Shown here one piece after another: positions 46,424 through 48,077 of a stretch of 64,000 nucleotides of DNA. The notes below the pieces were generated by a model, which was given only the letters and a program-made list of their open reading frames with translations, was not told the DNA's origin and ran no database searches. How positions within the stretch are numbered: position 1 is the stretch's first letter; each line of letters begins with the position of its first letter. Both the position numbers and the translations under genes were made by a program. Origin of the DNA: an uncultured Brachyspira sp. (GTDB lineage: Bacteria; Spirochaetota; Brachyspiria; Brachyspirales; Brachyspiraceae); the NCBI RefSeq assembly GCF_944393015.1, contig NZ_CALXYQ010000011.1:1-64000 (forward strand), written 5' to 3'.

Positions 46424-46909
46424 ATGAGTATATATGACTACACAGTTAAAGATGCTGAAGGTAAAGATGTAAAATTAAAAAAGTATGAGGGAAAGGTATT
46501 ACTTATAATTAATACCGCCACTAAATGAGGATTTACGAAACAATATTCTGCGTTGCAGGATTTATACAAAAAATACAAAAAGGATGGTTTTGAAATATTA
46601 GACTTTCCTTGTAATCAATTCGGCGGACAGGCTAAAGAACCTATTGAAGAAATTGCTGAGTTTAGAAAGGAGAAATACGGTATTACTTTCAAGCTATTTG
46701 ACAAAGTTAAAGTTAATAGTAAGAATGCTGATCCTTTATTTACTTATTTAAGAACTGAAAAGCCTACTGAAGAAGGCGTTGATAAAATAAGATGGAATTT
46801 CGGTAAGTTTTTAATAGATAGGCAAGGAAATATAGTTGGACGCTATGATCCTAGAGTAAAGCCTGAAGAACTTGATGAGATAGTAGCCGAATTATTAAAA
46901 AAAGAATAA
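46424..46909 (+). CDS. Selenocysteine-containing glutathione peroxidase family protein, 161 aa
   Basis: The frame opens at the ATG at 46424 after GGAGG and runs to TAA at 46907-46909 with one in-frame TGA at 46526-46528. That TGA is codon 35, the exact position of the catalytic Cys/Sec: NTATK-U-GFTKQY. The rest of the tetrad is intact: Gln69 in FPCNQFGGQ and Trp124-Asn125 in [10 protein letters not shown] hairpin that fits a bacterial SECIS lies 17-34 nt after the TGA. The length is that of a complete family member. Reading UGA as selenocysteine explains everything; a nonsense mutation at precisely the active residue would be a coincidence. It reduces peroxides, probably with thioredoxin. Confidence 0.9.
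46545..46561 (+). promoter_or_regulatory. Candidate bacterial SECIS hairpin
   Basis: A 7-bp stem (46545-46551 with 46555-46561, one G-T pair) closes a GTT triloop whose first base is G. The loop begins 23 nt after the TGA, within the distance known for bacterial SECIS elements read by SelB. It is inside the coding frame, as expected in bacteria. Confidence 0.7.
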
Positions 46910-46914
46910 AAAAT

Positions 46915-46955
46915 TAAGAGCTTTTATATATTGTTATATAGAAGCTCTTTTTATT
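46915..46955 (+). terminator. Terminator after the glutathione peroxidase gene
   Basis: AGAGCTT with an AT-rich extension pairs with AAGCTCT, and a T-run follows. Confidence 0.8.
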
Positions 46956-46984
46956 TTAAAAATAAATTCAAATCTATATCTATT

Positions 46985-47156
46985 ATAATTTTTTTATTTC
47001 TTTAATTTATTCATAAAAAAATTATTCGCTTAAAATATATAACAAATAAATTTGTTATATGCTCATAATTTTTTTATTTCTTTATTTATACATAAAAAAC
47101 TTGCTCGCTATTAATATCTAGTAAATAAATTTACTAGATGCTCACAAGTTTTTTAT
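46985..47156 (-). repeat. Tandem array of about 80-bp nested hairpins copied from the rpn 3' end
   Basis: A block reading ATAATTTTTTTATTTCTT or CAAGTTTTTTATTTCTTC starts at 46985, 47065 and 47145, exactly 80 bp apart. The third copy is the last codons of the nuclease gene. Between blocks lie two nested stem-loops. Inner stems are 10 bp with a TAAA loop (47037-47046/47051-47060 and 47116-47125/47130-47139). Outer stems are 13 bp (47013-47025/47065-47077) and 12 bp (47092-47103/47145-47156). Arms differ between units but pairing is kept. Confidence 0.85.
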
Positions 47157-48008
47157 TTCTTCTATACTTAATCCTGTGTTTTCACTTATGATTTTTATAT
47201 CTATGCCTGCATTTTTTAAACTTCTAGCTATAGATATTTGCTGTTCCTTCTTACCTTGTTCTATACCTTTCTTAATTCCTTCTTCAATACCTAATCTTCT
47301 CTCCTCATCAAGCATTATTTGATTACCATACAAATAAGCTTGTCTTTTATCATATTCATTCATCATTAGTCTGTCTTTTATAAAGTTATTATATCTTTTT
47401 TGCACTTCTTCCATTATAGGTTTTTCTTTTACTAATTCTGACATAACAACCTCCTTATTATCTTTTTCTTTCATTGTGAAAAATTTAAGCCAGCAGTTTA
47501 AATCTGGCTGTAATAAATTATATTTGAATTTTTTGAGTTCAATTATATGAATTTGTAAATGATCTGTTAACAGTCTTTTGCTGTTAGTATCATAAATCAT
47601 ATAACATGAATGTATAGAATCATTATCATCTAAATTAAAATTAAGTAAGTTGATACTAATTACTGGAGTTAAAGCATCATATTTTTCTCCATGCTTTAAT
47701 AGCTTACTATAATTAGCTGACCAATAATAAAGTATGCGTTCTGGAAATCTAGAATTACCTTGCAACTGTATTTCTATAATTACAACAGTCCCATTTTGAG
47801 TTATACACTTTACATCTGCTATTGTTTCTTTATCTTGATAATTTTCTTTATAGTTAAAAGGTGTAAGTATTTCTACGGATCTAAAAGTTTTCATATTAGA
47901 GTCGAGCATTATTGAATTGATAAAATCAAGCAGTATTAAATTACTGTCAGGTGATGAGAATAAATATCTCACAAAATAATCATTTAAAACATTAATATCT
48001 CTACTCAT
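47142..48008 (-). CDS. Rpn-family PD-(D/E)XK nuclease (PDDEXK_2, transposase-like), 288 aa
   Basis: The N-terminal domain has DYFVRYLFSSPDSNLILLDFIN and the catalytic core ADVKCITQNGTVVIIEIQLQ with Asp and Glu-x-Gln, the PD-(D/E)XK form of Rpn proteins. E. coli relatives are DNases linked to recombination and phage defence. The C-terminus has the usual EEGIKKGIEQGKKEQQISIARSLK helix and ends ENTGLSIEEIKNL. The ATG at 48008 is chosen because a promoter -10 box ends seven bases upstream, which would give a leaderless mRNA. A TTG at 48023 lies inside that -10 region. The last codons form part of a hairpin array. Confidence 0.85.
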   Translation of the reverse strand: MSRDINVLNDYFVRYLFSSPDSNLILLDFINSIMLDSNMKTFRSVEILTPFNYKENYQDKETIADVKCITQNGTVVIIEIQLQGNSRFPERILYYWSANYSKLLKHGEKYDALTPVISINLLNFNLDDNDSIHSCYMIYDTNSKRLLTDHLQIHIIELKKFKYNLLQPDLNCWLKFFTMKEKDNKEVVMSELVKEKPIMEEVQKRYNNFIKDRLMMNEYDKRQAYLYGNQIMLDEERRLGIEEGIKKGIEQGKKEQQISIARSLKNAGIDIKIISENTGLSIEEIKNL

Positions 48009-48014
48009 AATATC

Positions 48015-48043
48015 ATTATACAAAAAATAACTATAAAAGTAAA
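48015..48043 (-). promoter_or_regulatory. Promoter of the rpn gene, apparently giving a leaderless mRNA
   Basis: On the minus strand TTTACT (48038-48043) and TATAAT (48015-48020) are 17 bp apart. Transcription would start at or next to the ATG at 48008. No ribosome-binding site exists. Confidence 0.5.
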
Positions 48044-48077
48044 GTTTTGATTATTTATTATTAAAGCGGCAAAATAA

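What the first reader, a model, noticed from the sequence alone, without database searches (positions are those of the whole stretch)
46985..47156. Covarying nested hairpins repeated in tandem at the 3' end of an Rpn-type nuclease gene
Two consecutive units, 79-80 bp apart, each have an outer stem (13 or 12 bp) and an inner 10-bp stem closed by the same TAAA loop. The inner stems differ at three positions on each arm, and all three changes are compensated, so pairing is exact in both. The outer stems also change together (AATTAT/ATAATT versus ACTTG/CAAGT). The outer arm nearest the gene is its own last codons, and all three block copies would encode E-I-K-(N/K)-L-stop. Paired changes suggest the structure itself is under selection, for example as an RNA or DNA target for the nuclease, an mRNA stabiliser, or a site for tandem duplication.
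Basis: partly seen in the sequence, partly recalled or inferred. Interest (0 to 1): 0.72.

Follow-up and report, generated by a model that had tools for sequence, protein, structure and literature searches.

The report
Mobile nested-hairpin repeats in Brachyspira
The two hairpins at the end of this nuclease gene belong to a family of short, hairpin-forming DNA repeats that has spread by insertion through nearly all Brachyspira genomes, usually just after genes; they are not a special target or RNA of this nuclease.

Summary
On the minus strand, two nested hairpins 79 bp apart start inside the last codons of a PDDEXK_2/Rpn gene. They are two of about 72 copies (51 loci) in this genome. A covariance model finds the family in 23 of 26 Brachyspira genomes (0-79 copies) and in none of 12 relatives outside the genus. 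A GTDB-wide pattern scan gives 68 Brachyspira hits and one chance hit. The fold is conserved with many compensated changes.

Only 9 of 51 loci are at rpn 3' ends; the rest lie near other genes, including inside operons. At this very locus sister species carry 0, 1, 2, 3, 4 or 7 copies. Empty sites show that the repeat is inserted, and the end of the upstream gene (about 18 bp) is repeated on the far side. Rpn number does not track hairpin number among hairpin-rich genomes. No IS200/RAYT transposase occurs in the genus.

Best reading: a new, genus-restricted family of MITE/YPAL/ERIC-like palindromic elements that insert at gene 3' ends, amplify locally in tandem, and fold as RNA (or single-stranded DNA). 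The mobilising enzyme is unknown.

The parts
47142..48008 (-). rpn gene (PDDEXK_2), 288 aa, ending ...GLSIEEIKNL-TGA
   Evidence: PF12784 155 bits, cut-off 27.4; ORF list
47092..47156 (-). hairpin unit 1 (gene-proximal): outer arms 47145-47156 and 47092-47103, GA/GA mismatches 47142-47143 and 47105-47106, inner arms 47130-47139 and 47116-47125, loop 47126-47129
   Evidence: cmsearch 86.4 bits, E 1.2e-17; fold
47013..47077 (-). hairpin unit 2: same geometry, different subfamily (ATTA outer arm, ATAACAAA inner arm)
   Evidence: cmsearch 76.5 bits, E 2.7e-15
47142..47159 (-). gene end GAAATAAAAAACTTGTGA (EIKNL-stop), overlapping the 5' outer arm of unit 1
   Evidence: sequence
47063..47080 (-). 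second copy of the gene end, GAAATAAAAAAATTATGA (EIKKL-stop), overlapping the 5' outer arm of unit 2
   Evidence: sequence
46983..47000 (-). third copy, GAAATAAAAAAATTATAA (EIKKL-stop), probably the displaced original gene end
   Evidence: hairpin-free orthologue in L121 ends GAAATAGAAAAACTATAATAG; the same type of sequence lies after the arrays in L104, L118, L136, L137
46916..46949 (.). separate terminator-like hairpin between the convergent GPx and rpn genes
   Evidence: terminator scan: 1 found versus 0.1 expected
46968..48076 (.). stretch holding rpn and its hairpins that is absent as one block in L119 (G015) and L120 (G002)
   Evidence: alignment of the orthologous locus

Best explanation
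The hairpins are copies of a non-autonomous, mobile, palindromic repeat family restricted to Brachyspira. A copy has a 65-nt nested-hairpin core; at many non-rpn sites a further ~30 nt on each side is shared between copies. Shown: copies are inserted at or just after the stop codon of a gene, more often in sense orientation, and the end of the upstream gene is found again beyond the copy at the loci examined. Shown: once present, copies expand and contract in tandem, and units of different subfamilies mix. At rpn genes the element supplies the last codons and the TGA stop. Inferred: the strand that folds is the transcribed one, so the repeat probably travels in the mRNA as a stable hairpin that may affect processing, decay or read-through; any such effect is a by-product or later use. 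Inferred: the association with rpn comes from insertion into this gene family's AT-rich 3' end and from duplication of rpn genes that already carry hairpins. The enzyme that moves it is unknown.
For: 51 loci with 72 copies in this genome, 9 at rpn ends. 23 of 26 Brachyspira genomes have it, 0 of 12 genomes outside the genus. A GTDB-wide pattern scan gave 68 Brachyspira stretches and one Pinibacter hit without the stems. Copy number at the window's own locus is 0, 1, 2, 3, 4 or 7 in different species. Empty sites: the L077 insertion (G017, two copies in G016) is missing in 20 orthologous loci from other genomes, and in G017 TAACAAAATAATAATTTT, which includes the upstream gene's last codons and stop, is found on both sides. 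Direct repeats flanking a copy match each other better than they match other copies' flanks, permutation p = 2e-4. 14 double Watson-Crick changes among one-step neighbours; 92% of cells paired against 43-50% when slid. G-T pairs exceed A-C 84 to 28.
Against: No mobilising enzyme was found, and no long copy with a gene between its two halves in this genome. Flanking direct repeats are AT-rich, differ in length and are clear at only a few loci, so recombination between pre-existing repeats is not fully excluded. Rpn-linked copies are over-represented: 9 of 51 loci against about 30 rpn matches in the genome. Some copies are old and shared at one locus by many species (the EAKEKL locus), which suits long maintenance as well as mobility.
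Confidence: 0.8

Rival explanations
1. Rpn moves the hairpins, or uses them as its nucleic acid target, as RAYT does with REP sequences.
For: In nearly all rpn genes that carry a recognisable hairpin the stop lies at position +15 of the first hairpin. Across 26 genomes rpn and hairpin counts correlate, Spearman 0.65. Zhong et al. suggest that Rpn proteins may drive repeat changes in their own genes (PMC10327210).
Against: Both counts also follow genome size (0.65 and 0.79), and there is no correlation among the 16 hairpin-rich genomes, rho 0.12. G031 has 25 rpn matches and one weak hairpin; G011 has 1 rpn match and 10 hairpins. RpnA is non-specific and has no cruciform preference (PMC5350276). 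Most copies are away from rpn.
Confidence: 0.08
2. A cis-acting RNA element, under selection, that stabilises, ends or processes the rpn mRNA and other mRNAs; mobility is secondary.
For: Compensated changes; excess of G-T over A-C pairs in both stems; sense orientation to the gene on the left 25 versus 8 and on the right 31 versus 10 at non-rpn loci; T-rich 3' arm.
Against: The copy number at one locus varies from 0 to 7; L122 is a hybrid unit with an unpaired outer stem; orthologous copies at the EAKEKL locus carry one-sided mismatches. The rpn/GPx pair already has its own terminator-like hairpin beyond the array. Copies lie inside operons such as the dppC-dppD-like pair.
Confidence: 0.25
3. 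A chance local duplication with no wider meaning.
For: The two units are tandem.
Against: Dozens of copies in most genomes of the genus with one fold and many sequences.
Confidence: 0.01
4. attC-like recombination sites of a cassette system, with rpn as a cassette.
For: Structured site with a variable inner hairpin at the 3' end of a gene; rpn plus hairpins is absent as one block in two species.
Against: No GTTRRRY/RYYYAAC boxes seen at the ends (read by eye); tandem hairpins without genes between them; insertion of single hairpins without a gene. The integron integrase was not searched for.
Confidence: 0.03

Closest known systems
YPAL/RU-2 of Yersinia (reviewed in PMC2229807)
   Same: Internal rather than terminal inverted repeats; flanking direct duplications of varying length (3-26 bp); small mobile repeat without a transposase gene of its own.
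   Different: YPAL is 168 bp and not A+T-rich; here the core is 65 bp, very A+T-rich, with nested stems, tandem arrays and a different genus. No sequence comparison was made.
ERIC/IRU/RU-1 of enterobacteria (PMC2229807, PMC10969869)
   Same: About 100-bp palindromic intergenic repeat between or after genes, tens of copies per genome, orientation relative to genes matters.
   Different: ERIC has terminal inverted repeats with TA ends; here no such terminal repeats were seen and tandem arrays are common.
REP sequences with RAYT transposases, and CGTC repeats (PMC3733652)
   Same: Small palindromes with compensated subfamilies, often 3' of genes, plausibly acting as RNA; CGTC repeats also lack a known transposase.
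   Different: No GTAG tag in the family consensus and no Y1 (IS200/RAYT) transposase in any of 26 Brachyspira genomes.

Membership tests
Small non-autonomous palindromic mobile repeats (MITE-like, in the broad sense) | Multi-copy, dispersed, under 200 bp, non-coding, in intergenic regions | tested here: met
   51 loci in this genome, 1 inside an open frame of 80 aa or more among non-rpn loci
Small non-autonomous palindromic mobile repeats (MITE-like, in the broad sense) | Presence/absence differences at orthologous sites | tested here: met
   L077 locus filled in two species and empty at 20 orthologous loci; window locus 0 to 7 copies
Small non-autonomous palindromic mobile repeats (MITE-like, in the broad sense) | Target-site duplication | tested here: inconclusive
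   Direct repeats of 14-22 bp at some copies, self against cross p = 2e-4, but lengths vary and the sequences are AT-rich
Classical MITE | Terminal inverted repeats matching a resident IS | tested here: inconclusive
   Flank profile shows no clear terminal inverted repeats at the ends; resident IS ends were not compared
REP/RAYT | Y1 tyrosine transposase in the genome | tested here: not met
   PF01797 in 0 of 26 Brachyspira genomes while 5 of 14 control genomes ring
REP/RAYT | GTAG tag at one end of the hairpin | tested here: not met
   No GTAG in the consensus flanks
Known Rfam RNA family | Match above the gathering score | tested here: not met
   cmscan of 46900-47300 with threshold 'evalue' gave no hit on the hairpins
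Integron attC | GTTRRRY/RYYYAAC boxes | tested here: not met
   Read from the flank consensus by eye

The most novel reading that the evidence does not exclude
A hairpin element and a nuclease that work together: Rpn nucleases, whose cuts leave 3' ends that can prime synthesis, spread and perfect these hairpins by template switching, and the hairpins in turn set the end of the rpn mRNA and the C-terminus of the protein, where RpnS-type antitoxins are encoded.
Probability: 0.06. Interest if true: 0.75.

Novelty: new member of a known kind. Interest (0 to 1): 0.4.

Why it matters
The searches of the open-access literature made here found no description of a dispersed palindromic repeat in Brachyspira. 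The family probably explains breaks in draft assemblies (several contigs end inside arrays) and gives copy-number differences that could serve strain typing. It also offers a case where structure is kept while sequence and copy number change, in a genus without RAYT transposases, so the moving enzyme is an open and testable question. It also warns that covariation between tandem repeats can come from mixing of subfamilies rather than from change in place.

Tried and rejected
Rfam match: none on the hairpins. RAYT/IS200 as mover: family absent from the genus. Reverse transcriptase as mover: in only 7 of 26 genomes and not following hairpin number. Autonomous copy with a gene between the two halves: not seen in this genome. 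Spread by phage or plasmid: no match in phage records and only two weak partial matches in plasmid records; one viral contig, an apparent B. innocens prophage piece, holds a copy. Pinibacter pattern hit: the stems are not there, chance. Intrinsic terminator as the main role: the simple scan scored the separate downstream hairpin and not these two.

Full report
What is there. On the minus strand, the coding strand of a PDDEXK_2/Rpn gene (47142-48008), two nested hairpins follow each other 79 bp apart at 47092-47156 and 47013-47077. Each has an outer stem of 12-13 bp, a GA/GA internal loop, two G-C pairs, a 10-bp inner stem with a 4-nt loop and a 7-nt bulge on the 3' side. As RNA the pair folds at -42.1 kcal/mol, z = -6.5. 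The gene's last codons and its TGA stop lie in the 5' arm of unit 1 and the GA motif next to it.

How far it extends. BLAST of the region within the genome gave 74 matches. A covariance model from ten aligned copies (A2, R1) finds 72 sense copies in 51 loci at E of 0.01 or better, and the family in 23 of 26 Brachyspira genomes, with 0 to 79 copies. None of 12 genomes from elsewhere in the phylum has it. A scan of 84,980 species genomes with an exact pattern gave 69 stretches: 68 Brachyspira, and one Pinibacter sequence without the stems.

Structure. In 108 distinct copies many stem positions show two to four kinds of Watson-Crick pair; G-T pairs (84) outnumber A-C (28). Counting each distinct pair of arms once, G-T against A-C is 36:16 in the inner and 21:7 in the outer stem, and one-step neighbours show 14 double compensated changes. 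The excess of G-T points to folding of this strand, as RNA or single-stranded DNA. The alignment was fitted to the model and so leans towards the structure; this is suggestive, not proof. The two units here did not diverge in place: unit 2's core is identical to copies on other contigs.

Context. In this genome 9 of 51 loci are at an rpn 3' end; 42 are not. The rest lie near other genes, for example a hisA-like gene, a chemotaxis-receptor-like gene and dppC/dppD-like transporter genes (named from sequence by eye), mostly in sense orientation (left gene 25 versus 8, right gene 31 versus 10). At rpn genes with a recognisable hairpin the stop is nearly always at position +15 of the first hairpin.

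Mobility. At the window's own locus, between the GPx gene and rpn, sister species carry 0 (L121), 1 (L122, L137), 2 (L124, L135, L136), 3 (L134), 4 (L133) or 7 (L123) hairpins. L122 is a hybrid of the two units with a broken outer stem, which suggests that arrays shrink by recombination. In a hairpin-free orthologue the gene ends GAAATAGAAAAACTATAATA; in filled genes that sequence lies beyond the array. At an unrelated locus the repeat is inserted in G017 and, in two copies, in G016, while 20 orthologous loci are empty; in G017 an 18-bp stretch with the upstream gene's stop codon is found on both sides. Over 28 single copies the flanks match each other better than other copies' flanks (p = 2e-4). 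The whole rpn gene with its hairpins is absent as a block in G015 and G002.

Relation to Rpn. Counts of rpn and hairpins correlate over 26 genomes (0.65), but both follow genome size, and among hairpin-rich genomes there is no correlation. G031 has 25 rpn matches and one weak hairpin. RpnA of E. coli is non-specific with no cruciform preference and leaves dsRNA alone (PMC5350276). A special role as Rpn target is therefore unlikely, though not tested for Brachyspira Rpn.

Conclusion. This is a new genus-wide family of an established kind, small palindromic mobile repeats such as YPAL, ERIC and REP (PMC2229807, PMC3733652, PMC10969869). It is not a REP/RAYT system: no Y1 transposase in the genus and no GTAG tag. 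Its mover is unknown, and an RNA-level effect on neighbouring genes is plausible but untested.

Noticed in passing
window 46424-46909 (+): The glutathione peroxidase gene next door reads through an in-frame TGA at codon 35 (NTATK-TGA-GFTKQY), so it is probably a selenoprotein; the orthologue in L136 (G003) has TGC (Cys) there. A weak hairpin lies 19 nt after the start of the TGA.
   Followed up: partly
L271, L014, L165, L065: Intergenic regions hold further palindromic families with the same GAGC...GCGA plan but other arms, sometimes nested in each other.
   Followed up: no
L237 4405-4460 (-): A copy of the hairpin lies just before a gene in an 11-kb viral contig, which has the length and hit position of a B. 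innocens contig.
   Followed up: no
L131, L132 (orthologous locus): At the GPx locus G008 and G013 carry a much more divergent rpn (about 46% identity) in the same place, as if the gene had been replaced.
   Followed up: no
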